Assembly: GCA_026981635.1 (NCBI GenBank) | Contig: JALSIF010000253.1 | Location: 1 to 12,521 of the forward strand | Origin: a bacterium | GTDB lineage: Bacteria; 4484-113; JALSIF01 | DNA length: 12,521 nt | Reading direction: 5' to 3' | Shown: positions 2 to 11,459 of the stretch, one piece after another | Position numbering within the stretch: position 1 is the first letter of the stretch | How the letters are laid out: each line of letters starts with the position of its first letter | Notes under the pieces: generated by a model | Database searches by the model: none | Told to the model about the DNA's origin: nothing | The model's input: only the letters and a program-made list of their open reading frames with translations | Made by a program: the position numbers and the translations under genes

Positions 2-676
2 CGGGAGGCCAAGCGGCTCATGGCCCAGGGGGAGGTGGAGCTCAGGCGAGCGAGGGAGGAGGCGGAGGCCATCCTTCGCCATGCTAGGGAGGAGGCAGAA
101 AAGCTCCGCCAGCAGGCAGAAGGGGAGGTCAGGCGGAGGGCCAAGGAGGCGGCAGAGCAGGCCCGCGCCAGGGTGGAGGGGGAGATCCGCCAGCGCTGCG
201 AGGAGGTGGTGAGAAAGCTTGAGGGCCTGCCCCGGGTGCTGGAGGAGAAGCTTAAGCAGGAGATAGAGGAGCTGGAGCCGGATCTAGTGGAACTAGCTCT
301 GGCGGTGGGGAGGGTACTGGCGGAGCACGAGCTTTCCCTGGATCCCTCGCCGGTTAGAAAGGCCATCCTGGAGCACCTCAGACTGATTGAGGGCGAGAGC
401 CATATCTCCATCCGCATCGCCCCCCGGCTCATGCGCAGATTGGAGGAGGCGGGCGAGCTTGAGCTTCTCAGAACCGAACTCAAGAACCGGGGCAACGGGG
501 TGGAGATCAGGGCCGACGAGAGCCTGGAGGGGGGCTATCTCATTGAGACCCCGCGGGTGAGCATTGATCACTGCTGGGGGCGGGTGATGGAGGAGATCCG
601 AAGAGTGCTGGGGCAAGGCGCTGGCGGCAGGCAGGAAGATACCGGGGCAGACAGGGAGGCGCAGGGAGAAGCTTAG
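2..676 (+). CDS. FliH/YscL-like coiled-coil stator protein (5' partial)
   Basis: The reading frame is already open at base 2, and the codons before the first Met (base 20) continue the same charged helix (R-E-A-K-R-L). The true start therefore probably lies left of the window and the Met at 20 is internal. About the first 65 residues from that Met are an Ala/Glu/Arg-rich coiled coil. A hydrophobic helix (LALAVGRVLAEHEL) follows, then an alpha/beta domain (ISIRIAPRLMRRLEE) and a Gly-Gly turn (DESLEGGYLIETPRVSID). This order matches the FliH/HrpE/YscL family, peripheral-stalk-like proteins that bind and regulate a rotary-type ATPase. The V-type ATPase E subunit is a distant relative and the main alternative. 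No ATPase gene follows; the next gene is fixC-like, 76 bases on. Which machine it serves cannot be told from this window. Confidence 0.6.
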   Translation, partial: REAKRLMAQGEVELRRAREEAEAILRHAREEAEKLRQQAEGEVRRRAKEAAEQARARVEGEIRQRCEEVVRKLEGLPRVLEEKLKQEIEELEPDLVELALAVGRVLAEHELSLDPSPVRKAILEHLRLIEGESHISIRIAPRLMRRLEEAGELELLRTELKNRGNGVEIRADESLEGGYLIETPRVSIDHCWGRVMEEIRRVLGQGAGGRQEDTGADREAQGEA

Positions 677-2184: not shown

Positions 2185-2991
2185 TCAGACAAGCTTTGCA
2201 ACCAGCCAGATGAGCAGGATGAGGACCAGGAGCTCCACCGAGTTCTCCGCCAGCCAGGCGGCAAAGCCCTGGGGAAAGAGAGTGCGCCATAGGGTAGCAC
2301 CCTCCTCCGGCGCCGGCGGCTCCATGGCCAAGAGGATGCGCTCTCTGACCTGGTCGTAGTGGGGGCTTCGTGCCACCTCGGGGGGGGCCTGCTCAAGCAC
2401 CTCCAGCGCCCGCTCGGGGCGCTCAAGCTCAAGGTATGCCTCGGCCAGGGCGAGATGGGGGCGGATAAGGTGGGGGGCAAGGCGCACCGCCTGGGCAAAC
2501 TCGTTTAGCCCGTCCAGCAGGTAGCCCCGCCGGGCGGCGGCGAGACCGGCGTTGAACCGCTCCATGGCGGCACGCTCACCTTCGCGCAGATAGGCCACCC
2601 TGCCCCTAAGCAGGCGGACCGGCTCGCTCTCCTGATCCAGGCGAGAAAGCAGCTCCTCCGCCTCGTCCAGGCGGTGGAGGCCCACCAGCGCCTCGGCCAA
2701 AAGGAGCTGGGCCTCCTGCCTAAGCTCGTCCCACAACAGGGCGGCCCGGTCGGCAAGCTCCAGCACCTCCTCAAACTCGCCCCGGGCAAGCTCCAACCTG
2801 GCCTGGGCGATGAGGCCCCGCGCCTCGGCGGCAAGCTCCATAAAGGGGGACAGGTCGCCCCCGCACTCGGGGCACCTATCCGGCATGGGATGGGGCAGGC
2901 GGCTCCGGCAGAGGGGGCAGAAGTGGAGGGTGAGAGCTTCGCTTCTCTGCTCGGTCTCAATCGTCACCGTAAGGCTAATGCCCCCTTGCAA
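2185..2991 (-). CDS. Zinc-ribbon, TPR, C-terminally membrane-anchored protein
   Basis: Last gene of the Hsp70 operon, 50 bases after the dnaK-like stop. The 268 residues contain a four-cysteine zinc ribbon (C25-P-L-C28 and C40-P-E-C43), then helical pairs of TPR type from about 57 to 205. The clearest TPR motifs are AMERFNAGLAAARRGYLLDG and the following ALAEAYLELERPERALEVLE. A Pro-rich hinge precedes a hydrophobic segment (SVELLVLILLIWLVAKLV, 251-268) that ends the protein, as in tail-anchored proteins. No signal peptide is present, so the ribbon and TPRs should face the cytoplasm. The start shown is TTG at 2991; GTG at 2967, after a GGGGG tract, may be the real one and would lose only eight residues. 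I do not recognise a named family. Its place after grpE and dnaK suggests that it docks the chaperone or its clients at the membrane (inference). Confidence 0.75.
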   Translation of the reverse strand: MQGGISLTVTIETEQRSEALTLHFCPLCRSRLPHPMPDRCPECGGDLSPFMELAAEARGLIAQARLELARGEFEEVLELADRAALLWDELRQEAQLLLAEALVGLHRLDEAEELLSRLDQESEPVRLLRGRVAYLREGERAAMERFNAGLAAARRGYLLDGLNEFAQAVRLAPHLIRPHLALAEAYLELERPERALEVLEQAPPEVARSPHYDQVRERILLAMEPPAPEEGATLWRTLFPQGFAAWLAENSVELLVLILLIWLVAKLV

Positions 2992-3041: not shown

Positions 3042-4787
<1,746 letters not shown>

Positions 4788-4870: not shown

Positions 4871-5518
4871 TCACTGGCCCGGGTTGCGGTTGACCACCAC
4901 TTCGGTGGGGCGGAGCACCGCACCCTCAAACTGGTAGCCGGGCCTAAGCACCCTGATCACCCACTGATCGGGAAGGTCGTCGTGTTCCTCCCGGGCCACT
5001 GCCCGCTGGGTCTTGGGGTCAAAACGGTCGGTTAGGGGGAGGGGCTCAGCCCCCCAGGCCCTGAGCCTGCCCATGAGCAGGTCGCGGATGGCCATCAGCC
5101 CCTGCCACAGGGAGCCCTCCACCCGCTCCTCGCCCACGCTGGTAATCAGGCGGTCAAAGGCGTCAACGATGATGATCAGCTCCTCCACCGCCTGGCGGCG
5201 CCACTTCATCTCTCCCCCCATGAGCCTTTGGCTGAGGAGCTTGTTGGTCTCGGCAAGCTCGCGCCTCAGCTCCTCCAGGCCGATGGCCTCGGCGGGGGGC
5301 AGGCGCAGGGTCTTTAGCTGGTTGCTGAGGCGGAAGAACTCGGCCCTAAGCCGGCTGAGCTCGGTCTTAAGCTCATAAAGGGTGACGGCGGCTAGCTCGG
5401 CGTGATGCTCACCTGCCTCCCCGACAGGGCTGGCTTCGGACGGGGTCTCCAGCACCTCCCGGTAGGGCTCAAGCTGGTCCCACAGGCTCTCCTCGGCGGG
5501 TGCACCCTCAAGCTTCAT
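4871..5518 (-). CDS. grpE: GrpE-type nucleotide exchange factor
   Basis: A 215-residue GrpE family protein, the dimeric cytoplasmic factor that releases ADP from Hsp70. After a poorly conserved acidic N-terminus comes the long coiled-coil helix (about 45-100), the core helix RRQAVEELIIIVDAFDRLI (108-125), and LWQGLMAIRDLLMGRLRAWG (137-156). The beta-domain signature is FDPKTQRAV (166-174), then VIRVLRPGYQFEGAVLRPTEVVV. The order and spacing are those of GrpE, although identity to housekeeping GrpE looks low. It starts six bases after the stop of the giant TPR gene, and its GGAGG (5534-5530) lies inside that gene's last codons, so translation is probably coupled. The partner is presumably the Hsp70 encoded next. 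Confidence 0.88.
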   Translation of the reverse strand: MKLEGAPAEESLWDQLEPYREVLETPSEASPVGEAGEHHAELAAVTLYELKTELSRLRAEFFRLSNQLKTLRLPPAEAIGLEELRRELAETNKLLSQRLMGGEMKWRRQAVEELIIIVDAFDRLITSVGEERVEGSLWQGLMAIRDLLMGRLRAWGAEPLPLTDRFDPKTQRAVAREEHDDLPDQWVIRVLRPGYQFEGAVLRPTEVVVNRNPGQ

Positions 5519-5524
5519 CGCTGT

Positions 5525-8500
5525 CTATACCTCCGCCCACTCGCCCAGGTTTAGATTGAGGCTCAGGTTGGACCAAATCTCCTTTTCCACCTGATCGGGT
5601 GGGGAGGCCTCCCGTTCAAGGAAACCGTAGTCGGGAGGAGGTATCTCCACCTCAGGAGGCACCACCTCAAAGATGCCCGCCTGCCCCTCCCCGGCCACCT
5701 GGGCTCTGAGCTCCTTTACCGAGACGGGGTTGAAGGCAAACAGGTCCAGCACCTCGCGACGGGCGGGGCTGGTCAGGTTTTCGTAGGCCTCCTCTATGAG
5801 CATGAAGTCCTCTGCGTGGCGCTCGGGGTTGTAGATCTTGATCAGGCGGAAGTACTCCCGCTCCACCTGGGAGGGGCTGGCCCGCTTGGTTAGGCCGAGG
5901 ATGGCGTACATGCGGTGGACCCGGCGATATAGGTCTATCTTTGACTCTAGGTTGATGCGCTCAATGGAGTATTGGTCAAGGCCAGGAAGTTTCCTCAGGT
6001 CGCGGATGAGATCGTCCAGCGTCTTTAGCTTCCTGGCCAGTTCGGCGGGCACCCTTCCTCCCTCAACCTGCCGGTCAAGCAGGGTTTTGAGGCGTTCAAA
6101 GGTGGCCAGGGCATCCTCGTAGCGGCCGGCTGAGAGCTGGGCGATGGCCAGGTTCTGGACTATCTCGGGGTTGCGGTTGTCATATTTGAGGGCCTTTTTC
6201 CACTCCTCAATGGCTACCGTAAGCTGATCACGACGGGCAAGCTGGAAGGCGTTGAGATTGAGGGTGGCGGCGTATAGCTTGGCCAGGACATGGTGCATGT
6301 CCTTTAGCCTGCCCTGCTTCTCCCACAGCTTTCTCAGCTCCTCCCAGATCTCCATCGCCTCCTCGGCATAGCCCGCATCCAGGAAGGCCAGGCCCAGCTC
6401 CAGCAGGACTTGCTCGCGGCGCTGCTTGAAGTCGGGGTGGGCCTGGGAGATCTCTACCAGTCGCCGCCAGTAGTGCATGGCCACTTCCTTCTCCCCCCGC
6501 TCGGCGTGGAGCTTGCCCAGGTACCAGAGGAGGCGGGGGTCGTCCTGGCGATCCTTCTGCTTGAAGAGCTGATCAAGGATTTGCTGGGCCTTGTCTATGG
6601 TGCCGTCCTTGAGGTAGATGGCGGCGCCCACCAGGTCGTGGTCAGGAAGCTCCAGGCGGGCAAAACGCTGCTCACCCCGGGACTCGGTGTCCAGCAGAAA
6701 GGCACGGTAGAGCAGGGGATAGTCTCGCTCAAGCATTCCCCCGCGCTGGATTAGGTCGGCAAACACCTTCCAGGCCTTTTTCCACTGGGCGGCCTCCATG
6801 TAGCAGTAGGCCTGGTTGCGCTCAAGTTCAATGGGGTGCAGCCCCCACTGCAACTGCTGGTAGAAGACTACCGCCTGAGAATAAACCTTTAGCAGGTGGT
6901 AGGCGATGGCCAGGAAGTAGAGGTTGCGGGAACGCTCTGGGTCAATCTTGTAGGTGGCCTCGTAGAGAAGGATGGAGCGCTCGTAATCAGCGTTGAAGAA
7001 GGCGGGCTCGCTATAGGACCAGATCAGACGAGTGGCTAAGCCGATGAGATCCTGGTCTGCCCGAGAGCGGAAGTCACGGCCAGCAACCATTCGGGAGGCG
7101 GACTCATATTCCCCCTCCCTGAGCAGTTTGGCTGCCTGAATTAGCATGCACAAAGCGAGAAAGCGGTTCTCCGCCCGGCCGCGGGGGTTCAGTTCCAGGA
7201 TGCGCTCAAAGTGGCGCTCGGCGCCCTGGATGTCTCCCTCCCTAAGCATAATCACGCCCCGCTGGATCTCCACCCAGCGACGGAAGGCCTCCCCCCCGGG
7301 CTGTTCAAGGGCACGGCGGTAGAGGTCCTTGGCGGCGGAGAGATCACCCTTCAGCTCCAGGGCGTTGCCCCGTCGGATGGTGATCAGGGCGGGGGAGACC
7401 TCAAGGCCCATCTCCACCGACCTTTCCAACAGGCTGAGGGCGTTATCCGGCTCGCCCAGGGCAAGGTAGGCCACCGCCCGCCAATACTCCGCCCGGGGAC
7501 GCAGGCTCTCCTGCTTGATCTGGGAGAGGAGTTTCAGAGCCTCCTTGGCCTTGCCTTCCAGGATGAGCACCTTGGCCAAGCTGTAGCGGTTTAGGTCGGT
7601 ACCGGAGATCTCAAAGGCCACCCGGGCCGCCCGGGCCGCCTGCTCAAAGTTAAAGTGCTGCATGTAGAACTGGGTGATGTCGGAGAGGATTTCCACTCGG
7701 CCACTCGCCTTAAGCAGGTTCACCAGCCGGTCGGGGTCAGCATCAAAGGCGCGCACCACCATCTGGAGGGTGCGGCGAAGCAGTTTCTTCTGGCCAAGCA
7801 GTTCGGGCAGGAGACGGAAGGCGATCTCCGGGTGGGAGTGGAACTTGTCAATGTCAAAGGCCAGGTTGAGGATTTCCTTGACCGTGGGGTCCTTTTCCGG
7901 GTCGGCCCCTTCCTCAATAAATATCTGGGCCAGGATGCGCACCAGACGGGGGTTCTCGCGGACCTTGTCGCCCAGCTCCCGGTATAGCTCCAGGTAGGCC
8001 TCCTTGGCCTCCTGGTCGGTGAACTCAAGGTTGAGGAAGCAGCGGGCCTGGGCCAGCTTGAGGTCGCGGTGGCGCTTCTCCTGCTTGACCCGAGGAAGTA
8101 GAAAGTCAATCAGCCGCAGGGTCTTCTGATCAAACTGGGACTGACCAAGGCGCACGTCAAGCAGGATCTGGGCCAGCTCCACCTTGAAGGGGTGGCTGTC
8201 GGAAAGCAGGGCGAAGGCACGGTTGTAGACCTCAATGGCCTCCTCCGAGGTGTCCAGGGTCTGGGCATAGCTGTGGGCGAGAAGCTCAATGATCTCTGGA
8301 TCGGAGGGGTCGTAGCTGAGGGCGCGGTGGTATATACGGCGAGCTCCCTCGTCCACCCGCTTCTGGCGTACATATTCGCGGGAGAGCAACCAGTAGATCT
8401 TGTCGTCGGCCCGGTCGGGGAAGAGGTTGATGAACTCCTCATAGACCTTGGCGGCAAAGGGGGTCACCTCCTCAATGGCTACCAGGTGCTGCGTAAGCAG

Positions 8501-9532
8501 GTAGACCGCCCGGCGGGAGAGGTCGTGGTGGCGCAGGGCAGCCTCGTAGATCTGGCGGGCCTCCTCATCCAGGCGCTCCATCTCCACCAGGGTCTCGGCA
8601 TACTCCCCAATGAGCCTGCCCTCCCTGAGTCCCGCCTGATAGAGTCGCTCCGCCCATACCCCTTTGGGGAGGAACTTGCGGGTGCCGGAGAGCACCACAT
8701 CGGCCAGTTTTCTGAGCAGGTCCTTGTGCACCAGGCCCTGCTCCACCGCCTGCTCAATGAGGGGGGCGGAAAACTCGCTGATCTGACCGCGGCGGATCTT
8801 TTCGTTGGCATAGAGGCGAAGCACCTCGGGGTCCTCGTGCTCGCTTAGCCACTTCTCGTAGAAGCTGAGGGCAAAGTCGTCGCGGGCCTGGTGCTTCACA
8901 AGCACGTTGCGCAGCGTCTCGGCCAGCTTCTGGTCCTCGGGACGGTTTGACCAGGCTGCCTTGTAGACCGCAAGTGCCTTCTCGTCATCCCTACCCTGCT
9001 CAAGGTAGAAGCGGCAGATGAGCTCGCTTCCTCCCGTCCACATGGGGAACTCTTCCGCCGCCCGCTCAATGAGCTCAAAGTCATCCGGGGAGATATCCTC
9101 GCGCTTGACCAGCACCTTGGCCAGGTTGAGCAGGGTGCGGGTGTCCTTGGGGTCGTGGCGCAGCTTGCGGCGGAAGATCTCCTCGCTGTCGGGAGTAAAC
9201 AGCTTGTACTCGCTGATGAAGGCCAACGCCTCGCGCAGAACTTCGCTTCGGCCCAGCTGCTCCTCCAAAAGCACCGCCTCGCGGTAGGCGTGCAGGGCCT
9301 CTTCATACTTGCCCAGGCTTTTGAGGCCGCGGGCATAGAGCAGCCAGGCATCCAGCATCAGTTCCGGATCGGCCCCGGCACCGTCCTTCTCCCGCACCTC
9401 GGAGAAGAACTTTTCCAGCACCTCAATGGCCTGTTCGCTAAGTCCCCGCTCCAGCAGTCCGGAGGCTCGTCTGATGGCGGCCTGGGGGCCCCGGCTCAGA
9501 ATCTTGTCTAGCAGTCCCATGATGAAAGGCAC
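5525..9532 (-). CDS. Giant TPR-repeat protein with C-terminal J-like domain (HPD replaced by NPE)
   Basis: First gene of the Hsp70 operon; 1335 residues, predicted cytoplasmic with no signal peptide or membrane span. Residues from about 17 to 1150 are a nearly continuous solenoid of TPR-like helical pairs, for example EEALHAYREAVLLEEQ (77-92), KEALKLLSQIKQ (663-674), NPEIVQNLAIAQLSAGRYEDAL (1121-1142). Residues about 1203-1266 resemble a J domain: MYAILGLTKRASPSQVEREY, a basic helix II, then IEEAYENLTSPARREVLDLF. The catalytic HPD of helix II/III is replaced by N1235-P1236-E1237, and the loop is short. A Pro-rich tail follows. The start shown is GTG; the ATG four codons later (9520, MGLLDKIL) looks at least as good. 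Neither has a strong Shine-Dalgarno. I infer a scaffold or client adaptor for the co-encoded Hsp70; the family has no name I can assign. Confidence 0.85.
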   Translation of the reverse strand: MPFIMGLLDKILSRGPQAAIRRASGLLERGLSEQAIEVLEKFFSEVREKDGAGADPELMLDAWLLYARGLKSLGKYEEALHAYREAVLLEEQLGRSEVLREALAFISEYKLFTPDSEEIFRRKLRHDPKDTRTLLNLAKVLVKREDISPDDFELIERAAEEFPMWTGGSELICRFYLEQGRDDEKALAVYKAAWSNRPEDQKLAETLRNVLVKHQARDDFALSFYEKWLSEHEDPEVLRLYANEKIRRGQISEFSAPLIEQAVEQGLVHKDLLRKLADVVLSGTRKFLPKGVWAERLYQAGLREGRLIGEYAETLVEMERLDEEARQIYEAALRHHDLSRRAVYLLTQHLVAIEEVTPFAAKVYEEFINLFPDRADDKIYWLLSREYVRQKRVDEGARRIYHRALSYDPSDPEIIELLAHSYAQTLDTSEEAIEVYNRAFALLSDSHPFKVELAQILLDVRLGQSQFDQKTLRLIDFLLPRVKQEKRHRDLKLAQARCFLNLEFTDQEAKEAYLELYRELGDKVRENPRLVRILAQIFIEEGADPEKDPTVKEILNLAFDIDKFHSHPEIAFRLLPELLGQKKLLRRTLQMVVRAFDADPDRLVNLLKASGRVEILSDITQFYMQHFNFEQAARAARVAFEISGTDLNRYSLAKVLILEGKAKEALKLLSQIKQESLRPRAEYWRAVAYLALGEPDNALSLLERSVEMGLEVSPALITIRRGNALELKGDLSAAKDLYRRALEQPGGEAFRRWVEIQRGVIMLREGDIQGAERHFERILELNPRGRAENRFLALCMLIQAAKLLREGEYESASRMVAGRDFRSRADQDLIGLATRLIWSYSEPAFFNADYERSILLYEATYKIDPERSRNLYFLAIAYHLLKVYSQAVVFYQQLQWGLHPIELERNQAYCYMEAAQWKKAWKVFADLIQRGGMLERDYPLLYRAFLLDTESRGEQRFARLELPDHDLVGAAIYLKDGTIDKAQQILDQLFKQKDRQDDPRLLWYLGKLHAERGEKEVAMHYWRRLVEISQAHPDFKQRREQVLLELGLAFLDAGYAEEAMEIWEELRKLWEKQGRLKDMHHVLAKLYAATLNLNAFQLARRDQLTVAIEEWKKALKYDNRNPEIVQNLAIAQLSAGRYEDALATFERLKTLLDRQVEGGRVPAELARKLKTLDDLIRDLRKLPGLDQYSIERINLESKIDLYRRVHRMYAILGLTKRASPSQVEREYFRLIKIYNPERHAEDFMLIEEAYENLTSPARREVLDLFAFNPVSVKELRAQVAGEGQAGIFEVVPPEVEIPPPDYGFLEREASPPDQVEKEIWSNLSLNLNLGEWAEV

Positions 9533-10919: not shown

Positions 10920-11459
10920 TTATGGACCGAACACAATGAGCAGGGTGCCCAGGATGATGAGGACCCAGGGGAGGTCGTGGGGGGAGCCGGTGGCAAAGAG
11001 GGCTATGCCGGCCCCCACCAGTCCACCCCCCAGAGAGATCACCAAGCGGCCCGCCAGAGGCGTGCGGTATAGGCTCGCCTCCTCCCCTGGGGTCAGCGTC
11101 TTACGATAGGGCTTGGGCTTGCGGACGAGGGGGTCCTGGAGCAGGGGGTCAAAGTCTTCAATGAAAAATTTGGGTGCCCCCCGCTCAAAGCCCACCTTCT
11201 CCTGGGCGATGGCCTGGGTGAGGATGAGCTGCTCAATCTCTCTCTTAGTTAGGGGACGGCCCAGCCTACGGTCGTAGGGGGCACCGTAGTACTCCGGGTA
11301 GGAGAGGCGGCGGGGATCAATGGCCTGGTGGGTAAGGCTGCTAGGCTTCTCGCGCCGCTTGGGAGTAATCAAATTGAGCAGCCTCCTGCCCGGAGAGCTT
11401 TTAGCTTTGGCCGGGGGCGGCAAGGAAGGGTCTTGCTTAGGCTGCCTCAAACTACCCAA
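10920..11459 (-). CDS. Unrecognised protein with two C-terminal membrane segments
   Basis: An open frame of 179 codons with the same G/C-ending codon preference as neighbouring genes, so I accept it as coding. The first 130 residues are basic, Pro-rich and apparently soluble, with repeated Pro/Tyr/Arg clusters (RRLSYPEYYGAPYDRRLGRP) and a short amphipathic helix (TKREIEQLILTQAIAQEKVG). Two hydrophobic spans follow (about 137-157 and 164-178), separated by a SPHDLP turn, which makes a C-terminal hairpin anchor with the long N-terminal part probably in the cytoplasm. The start shown is TTG at 11459; TTG three codons later is an alternative, and AGGT lies just upstream. It is convergent with the pilT-like gene and divergent from apt. 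I do not recognise the family. Confidence 0.65.
   Translation of the reverse strand: MGSLRQPKQDPSLPPPAKAKSSPGRRLLNLITPKRREKPSSLTHQAIDPRRLSYPEYYGAPYDRRLGRPLTKREIEQLILTQAIAQEKVGFERGAPKFFIEDFDPLLQDPLVRKPKPYRKTLTPGEEASLYRTPLAGRLVISLGGGLVGAGIALFATGSPHDLPWVLIILGTLLIVFGP

What the first reader, a model, noticed from the sequence alone, without database searches (positions are those of the whole stretch)
5735..5920. J-like domain without HPD at the end of a giant TPR protein, encoded next to GrpE and Hsp70
Seen: the C-terminal region has the helix I-IV pattern of a J domain, but the tripeptide is N1235-P1236-E1237 (bases 5830-5822, minus strand) and the following loop is short. Known: the HPD His and Asp are needed for J proteins to stimulate Hsp70 ATPase, and J-like subunits without HPD, such as Pam16, act as regulators. 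Inferred: this protein may recruit or restrain the co-encoded Hsp70 rather than stimulate it, or may use a non-standard contact. The operon has no other J protein.
Basis: partly seen in the sequence, partly recalled or inferred. Interest (0 to 1): 0.78.

Follow-up and report, generated by a model that had tools for sequence, protein, structure and literature searches.

The report
HPD-less J domain with matched Hsp70
A giant bacterial helper protein ends in a J domain that has swapped the supposedly essential HPD motif for NPE, and the Hsp70 chaperone encoded beside it carries matching changes at the contact surface, so this looks like a private, second chaperone machine rather than a broken one.

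Summary
The last 130 residues of a 1335-aa TPR protein contain a true J domain (Pfam DnaJ E=1.5e-9; predicted fold matches the DnaK-bound DnaJ J domain, 5NRO, at 1.5 Å over 57 residues). HPD is replaced by NPE and the loop is six residues shorter than in E. coli DnaJ.

It is not a local mutation. All 10 genomes of the class and 34 further homologues have x-P-E with the same short loop, never HPD. In the class it is the best-conserved stretch of the protein. Every class genome keeps TPR-J, GrpE, a short Hsp70 and a Zn-ribbon/TPR protein in one operon, beside a separate canonical DnaK system.

Its partner Hsp70 differs from DnaK at the known J-contact residues in a complementary way: E206K/R and E217K/R face J residues R22E and K51E; K26 becomes Phe. 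R167, the partner of the HPD aspartate, is kept. No like-charged pair occurs in 44 pairs, though independent events are few.

Best reading: a dedicated, probably productive J–Hsp70 pair, like E. coli DjlC–HscC (HPE, same short loop; DjlC stimulates HscC). The Pam16-like "restrain" idea is less likely but not excluded. Activity is untested.

The parts
5525..9532 (-). TPR-J protein, 1335 aa from GTG (ATG at 9520 more likely): about 1150 residues of TPR superhelix, then the J domain and a ~50-residue tail
   Evidence: model of residues 813-1335, mean pLDDT 86.7
5735..5920 (-). J domain core (residues 1205-1266), x-P-E type with a loop six residues shorter than E. coli DnaJ
5822..5830 (-). Asn-Pro-Glu in place of HPD (residues 1235-1237); P-E-R invariant in the class, first residue N or D
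5861..5863 (-). Glu1224 = DnaJ R22 position (charge reversed)
5849..5851 (-). Phe1228 = DnaJ K26 position (hydrophobic in all 44 x-P-E J domains)
5792..5794 (-). Glu1247 = DnaJ K51 position (charge reversed)
4871..5518 (-). Dedicated GrpE, 215 aa; a second GrpE lies with the canonical dnaK elsewhere in the genome
   Evidence: Pfam GrpE 65 bits
3042..4787 (-). Short partner Hsp70, 581 aa, without the DnaK acidic tail; ATPase residues kept, J-contact residues changed
   Evidence: Pfam HSP70 636 bits
4359..4361 (-). Arg143 of Hsp70 = DnaK R167, the partner of the HPD Asp; kept in all partners
4224..4247 (-). Hsp70 Lys181 to Lys188 = DnaK E206 to E217 (both Glu reversed to Lys; Val183 at the G212 position)
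3678..3689 (-). Hsp70 interdomain linker TIVD = DnaK 390-393 LLLD
2185..2991 (-). Zn-ribbon (CxxC...CxxC) plus TPR protein, last gene of the operon; C-terminal hydrophobic segment in this genome

Best explanation
This is the J-domain partner of a second, dedicated Hsp70 machine. Shown: it is a J-fold domain of a coherent x-P-E, short-loop class; it is genetically tied to GrpE, a short Hsp70 and a Zn-ribbon/TPR protein in every genome of its class; and the partner Hsp70 and J domain differ from DnaK/DnaJ at the contact positions known from the DnaK-DnaJ complex, in charge-complementary fashion, while R167 and the ATPase residues are kept. Inferred: the TPR superhelix collects particular clients or a complex; the C-terminal J domain docks only on the co-encoded Hsp70 through a remodelled interface in which Glu replaces the HPD Asp against R167, Glu22 and Glu51 face Lys/Arg at 206 and 217, and Phe26 packs on a hydrophobic loop; it triggers ATP hydrolysis; and the dedicated GrpE resets the cycle. 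The reversed charges would insulate the pair from the cell's canonical DnaK-DnaJ.
For: J fold and family. Conservation: the J domain holds 19 invariant positions per 50 residues, the most of any stretch, and P-E-R is invariant in 10 of 10 class members. Operon in 10 of 10 class genomes, with a separate canonical dnaK-grpE-dnaJ set in the class genomes. Bimodal score gap between x-P-E and ordinary J domains over 385 genomes; present in 35 of 40 genomes of the G021 phylum and 4 of 4 of the G118 phylum. Interface: J22/K206 pairs are K-E 27, E-R 8, E-K 5, R-E 2, K-Q 1, Q-K 1; J51/K217 pairs never have like charges; J35/K167 is E-R in 43 of 43 x-P-E pairs. Canonical DnaKs of the same genomes keep E206 (one D), E217 (one D) and a LLL-type linker. 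Other J domains in the class genomes keep HPD and almost always a basic position 22. Contact residues R22, K26, R27, K48, K51 with E206, D211, E217, D477, and D35 with R167, are from PMC8215388 and PMC13012618. E. coli DjlC has HPE and the same short loop and alone stimulates HscC among the J proteins tested (PMC8215388). Partner Hsp70s including HscC lie on one side of a branch with support 99 from the canonical DnaKs (quick tree). Genomes with x-P-E J always have a second Hsp70: 15 of 15 against 33 of 129 without (my count).
Against: No biochemical data. In tested systems H to Q or D to N in HPD abolishes stimulation (PMC8215388, PMC13254874), and here His is also lost (N/D/P/T/S/G in relatives), whereas DjlC keeps it. 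On the Hsp70 tree the charge changes amount to only 2-4 events, so covariation is perfect in direction but not statistically significant once ancestry is counted. J48/D477 is not complementary in every lineage. In six genomes outside the class the Hsp70 is not next to the J gene. I could not model the J-Hsp70 complex.
Confidence: 0.62

Rival explanations
1. Pam16-like regulator: the domain binds the co-encoded Hsp70, or an HPD-bearing J protein, but does not stimulate it; it tethers or restrains the chaperone at the TPR scaffold.
For: His and Asp of HPD are both replaced. Known HPD-less proteins such as Pam16 are inactive and inhibit the Pam18 partner (PMC13254874). In G001, G005 and G007 an HPD-bearing DnaJ is encoded directly upstream.
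Against: The interface is remodelled on both sides with Glu opposite the kept R167. Other J proteins of the class genomes have basic helix II residues that would face Lys/Arg on this Hsp70. The nearest tested relative, DjlC, stimulates. Pam16 has DKE or DKS rather than xPE.
Confidence: 0.22
2. The domain binds the partner Hsp70 for recruitment, and ATP hydrolysis is triggered mainly by substrate or by the TPR-bound client rather than by the NPE motif.
For: In some Hsp70/J systems an HPD/AAA variant does not fully abolish J-dependent activation, and H33A preserves binding in simulations (PMC13012618). The first motif position varies freely (N/D/P/T/S/G) across the family.
Against: Pro and Glu are invariant in all 44, which suggests a specific role at the R167 contact.
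Confidence: 0.12
3. Decaying J domain with no present Hsp70 function, kept as a structural cap of the TPR superhelix.
For: HPD is lost, and the Pfam score is low next to ordinary J domains (43.5 against 104 bits).
Against: It is the most conserved stretch of the protein. It occurs outside TPR giants, including stand-alone 115-117 aa proteins next to GrpE and/or Hsp70 (L090, L092). Operon linkage is complete in the class.
Confidence: 0.04

Closest known systems
E. coli HscC with DjlB and DjlC
   Same: Specialised short Hsp70 with a private J protein. HPE motif, non-basic position 26 (Leu in DjlC) and the same six-residue-shorter loop in the J domain. HscC is on the same side of the Hsp70 tree as the window partner and is not stimulated by DnaJ, CbpA or HscB (PMC8215388).
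   Different: DjlC keeps His33 and basic 22 and 51, and HscC keeps E206 and E217 (no charge swap). HscC lacks the GrpE signature and has no dedicated GrpE. DjlB/C are tail-anchored with an N-terminal J domain, not 1300-residue TPR proteins with a C-terminal J. HscC is 35% identical to the window Hsp70, and its long branch makes its placement unsure.
Canonical DnaK-DnaJ-GrpE
   Same: Hsp70 ATPase core, J fold, GrpE partner, R167 kept; 52% identity to the DnaK of the same genome.
   Different: HPD replaced, J-contact residues reversed or hydrophobic, VVV-type linker, no acidic C-terminal tail, substrate-arch residues 404 and 429 changed, separate locus.
Pam16/Tim16 (mitochondrial import motor)
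   Same: J-like domain without HPD; the Tim14-Tim16 structure is among the fold matches (2guz_A, Z 5.2).
   Different: Pam16 motif is DKE or DKS and it is inactive in a complex with Pam18; here P-E is invariant and the Hsp70 surface has changed with it.
HscA-HscB
   Same: Specialised Hsp70 with a private J protein.
   Different: HscB has HPD (established knowledge) and works without GrpE; E. coli HscA falls in the canonical side of the tree here (long branch).

Membership tests
J-domain superfamily (fold) | Four-helix J fold with antiparallel helices II and III | tested here: met
   Pfam DnaJ over cut-off; AlphaFold2 helices I-IV; 5NRO chain B 1.5 Å over 57 residues, Z 6.8
J-domain superfamily (functional J proteins) | HPD tripeptide | tested here: not met
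   NPE in the window; x-P-E in all 44 homologues examined
J-domain superfamily (functional J proteins) | Stimulates Hsp70 ATPase | not testable with these tools
   needs purified proteins
HscC-DjlB/C system | J domain with x-P-E and shortened loop | tested here: met
   DjlC aligned with the same loop length, HPE
HscC-DjlB/C system | Hsp70 groups with HscC rather than DnaK | tested here: inconclusive
   same side of a branch with support 99 (quick tree), but HscC is a very long branch and pairs with G112
HscC-DjlB/C system | GrpE signature of the Hsp70 absent, no dedicated GrpE | tested here: not met
   dedicated GrpE in the operon; K55-E267 pair kept
DnaK (canonical) | Conserved J-contact residues E206, E217 and VLLLD linker | tested here: not met
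   K, K, TIVD in the window protein; the DnaK of the same genome has E, E, LLLD
DnaK (canonical) | Acidic disordered C-terminal tail | tested here: not met
   partner Hsp70 ends at 581 aa; canonical DnaK of the genome ends ...VIEAEVVDEEEKKE
Hsp70 ATPase | Catalytic residues D8, K70, E171, D194, T199, D201 | tested here: met
   kept in 41 of 41 partner Hsp70s
Pam16-type inactive J-like protein | Forms a stable complex with an HPD J protein and does not stimulate Hsp70 | not testable with these tools
   needs pull-down and ATPase assays

The most novel reading that the evidence does not exclude
An orthogonal J-Hsp70 code: in this lineage the whole J-Hsp70 interface, including the supposedly essential HPD and the electrostatic docking patch, was rewritten in a coordinated way (R22E/K51E against E206K/E217K, K26F against a hydrophobic loop, HPD to NPE with R167 kept). 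The result is a fully active Hsp70 machine, insulated from DnaK, on a giant TPR client scaffold.
Probability: 0.5. Interest if true: 0.78.

Novelty: new variant of a known kind. Interest (0 to 1): 0.6.

Why it matters
A 2026 review of J proteins says it is enigmatic whether departures from HPD are accidents or selected, and that HPE seems to be the only tolerated replacement (PMC13254874). This family gives a natural series of 44 HPD-less domains, most with the partner Hsp70 sequence and many in an operon, under clear conservation, with matching changes on the Hsp70. That makes the question directly testable: swap the charges and see whether specificity follows. If the pair is active, the rule 'no HPD, no stimulation' needs restating. 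If it is insulated, it offers a ready-made orthogonal Hsp70 system.

Tried and rejected
Local mutation of HPD: rejected, none of 44 homologues has HPD. Chance similarity to a J domain: rejected (Pfam, fold, family profile). Single-protein scan of named genomes with the full protein: found nothing, probably because the TPR part diverges too fast; a J-domain alignment gave 11 named loci, uncultured bacteria variously labelled Planctomycetales, UBP7 or unclassified. CIRCE heat-shock operator in the window: none found with up to 3 mismatches. Statistical test of charge covariation on the tree: only 1-2 independent contrasts on supported branches, cannot reach significance. A C-terminal membrane anchor as a shared feature of the Zn-TPR protein: rejected, a hydrophobic C-terminus is visible only in the window, G002 and G004 (read by eye). 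Position G004:C56 was read in a wrong frame and is ignored. In one search two J regions were mis-picked and the script stopped; one search replaces it. One row of A2 (G004) was typed with R instead of the native residue order at its first position; it does not touch the motif. Literature searches for an earlier description of a bacterial x-P-E J family with matched Hsp70 changes found only the DjlB/DjlC note; subscription journals are mostly not held.

Full report
What is there. On the minus strand of the window four genes lie close together: a 1335-aa protein (5525-9532), GrpE (4871-5518), a 581-aa Hsp70 (3042-4787) and a Zn-ribbon/TPR protein (2185-2991). Residues 1208-1263 of the large protein match Pfam DnaJ at E=1.5e-9. 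The HPD position reads Asn-Pro-Glu at bases 5830-5822. AlphaFold2 with 12 aligned homologues predicts helices I-IV, with block pLDDT mostly 84-93 over the J domain. All leading PDB matches are J domains, including the DnaJ J domain bound to DnaK (5NRO chain B, 1.5 Å over 57 residues, Z 6.8). Foldseek E-values are modest (best 6e-3), as expected for so small a domain; a sequence profile also finds DnaJ structures (E=6e-8). A model of residues 813-1335 has mean pLDDT 86.7 and shows an all-helical, TPR-like array leading into the J domain.

It is conserved, not a lesion. All nine other genomes of the same class have the orthologue, all with [N/D]-P-E-R, and all in the order TPR-J, GrpE, Hsp70, Zn-TPR. 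The J domain is the best-conserved stretch of the protein (19 of 50 positions invariant, against 0-13 elsewhere). Named counterparts are uncultured bacteria labelled Planctomycetales 4484_113, UBP7 and similar.

A wider class. A profile of these J domains over 385 genomes separates a high-scoring group (62-139 bits) from ordinary J domains (62 bits or less). The group also fills two other phylum-level lineages (35 of 40 genomes around G021, including 20 of 20 good ones; 4 of 4 around G118) and is rare elsewhere (1 of 201 genomes around G209). All 44 members aligned have x-P-E and the same short loop, in giant C-terminal TPR-J proteins, in ~430-aa N-terminal J-TPR proteins, and in stand-alone 115-117 aa proteins. 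E. coli DjlC has the same short loop with HPE. So the missing HPD marks a class of J domain, not an accident.

Two Hsp70 machines per cell. All 23 genomes with this J class that were searched have at least two Hsp70s. The class genomes also have a separate dnaK-grpE-dnaJ set, on another contig (in the window's own fragmented genome dnaJ is on a different contig from dnaK, and in G008 the second GrpE was not found). The partner Hsp70 is 572-613 aa and lacks the acidic DnaK tail. In a background of 144 genomes, 15 of 15 with the J class have two or more Hsp70s, against 33 of 129 without (my count; counting the class as one lineage, 6 of 6, p about 4e-4).

The interface has changed on both sides. 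In the DnaK-DnaJ complex, DnaJ R22, K26, R27, K48 and K51 face DnaK E206, D211, E217 and D477; D35 bonds R167 and Q378; H33 bonds the L391 backbone (PMC8215388; also PMC13012618). Coevolution in ordinary pairs picks N187-K23, D208-K26 and T189-R19 (PMC5519331). In the window J domain these are E22, F26, R27, M48, E51 and E35; in its Hsp70 they are K206, K217, D477, R167, Q378, with linker TIVD for LLLD. The DnaK of the same genome keeps E206, E217 and LLLD. Over 44 pairs including E. coli DnaJ-DnaK and DjlC-HscC, J22/206 is K-E 27, E-R 8, E-K 5, R-E 2, K-Q 1, Q-K 1, and J51/217 is never like-charged; J35/167 is E-R in every x-P-E pair. Position 26 is hydrophobic in all x-P-E J domains, and the facing loop position 212 is mostly hydrophobic in the partners and mostly Gly in canonical DnaKs. 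ATPase residues are intact in 41 of 41 partners. Other J domains of the class genomes keep HPD and, with one exception (Thr), a basic residue at 22. Caution: on the Hsp70 tree the charge changes need only 2-4 events, so the match is consistent but not statistically proven.

Mechanism. Shown: fold, conservation, linkage, complementary interface. Inferred: a TPR client scaffold presents clients to its own Hsp70 through a re-tuned J domain, with Glu serving where Asp normally does and reversed charges giving specificity. The dedicated GrpE resets the cycle. The Zn-TPR protein is probably an adaptor; its function is not known. Substrate-arch positions 404 and 429 are changed from DnaK's conserved L/M and A, which suggests a different client preference. 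That DjlC, the same J type, stimulates HscC while DnaJ, CbpA and HscB do not (PMC8215388) is the best outside support for activity. The loss of His33 is the main doubt, since H to Q kills ordinary J domains.

Against known systems. It works most like DjlC-HscC. It is not filed as HscC-DjlC, because the GrpE-less feature of that system is tested and not met, and the Hsp70 placement is uncertain. It is a J domain by fold but fails the HPD criterion for functional J proteins. Pam16 is the other precedent for an HPD-less J domain, but its motif and logic differ.

Organism and limits. The host is an uncultured bacterium; the genome is 85% complete in 317 contigs. No complex structure could be modelled and no biochemistry exists.

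Noticed in passing
L048:4896-6650 (G021) and relatives: Partner Hsp70s of the G021 phylum and of G137/G274 carry an insertion of about ten residues just before the interdomain linker, with D393 to H and N170 to D; unusual in so conserved a region, and it goes mostly with D-P-E or P-P-E in the J domain.
   Followed up: partly
L129:6399-9848 (G021): An Hsp70 nucleotide-binding domain inside a 1149-aa protein whose C-terminus resembles a Ser/Thr kinase tail; similar long frames in G169 and G308.
   Followed up: no
L044:12514-14708 (G005); also G001, G007: hrcA and HPD-bearing dnaJ directly upstream of tprJ-grpE-hsp70, so in one family of the class the module sits in a classical heat-shock operon.
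   Followed up: partly
L090:3138-3491 and L092:2522-2869: Stand-alone x-P-E J domains of only 117 and 115 aa encoded next to GrpE and/or Hsp70; minimal versions of the same pair.
   Followed up: partly
window 2185-2991: Zn-ribbon/TPR protein is conserved in the operon, but its C-terminal hydrophobic segment is seen only in this genome, G002 and G004.
   Followed up: partly
window 10920-11459: 179-aa ORF on the minus strand between pilT and an APRT-like gene, no Pfam match.
   Followed up: no
window 2-676: Truncated FliH / ATP-synthase peripheral-stalk-like protein (FliH 36 bits) at the contig start.
   Followed up: no
G112:C78 and G112:C2: One genome carries two x-P-E J proteins of different architecture (425 and 1075 aa).
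   Followed up: no
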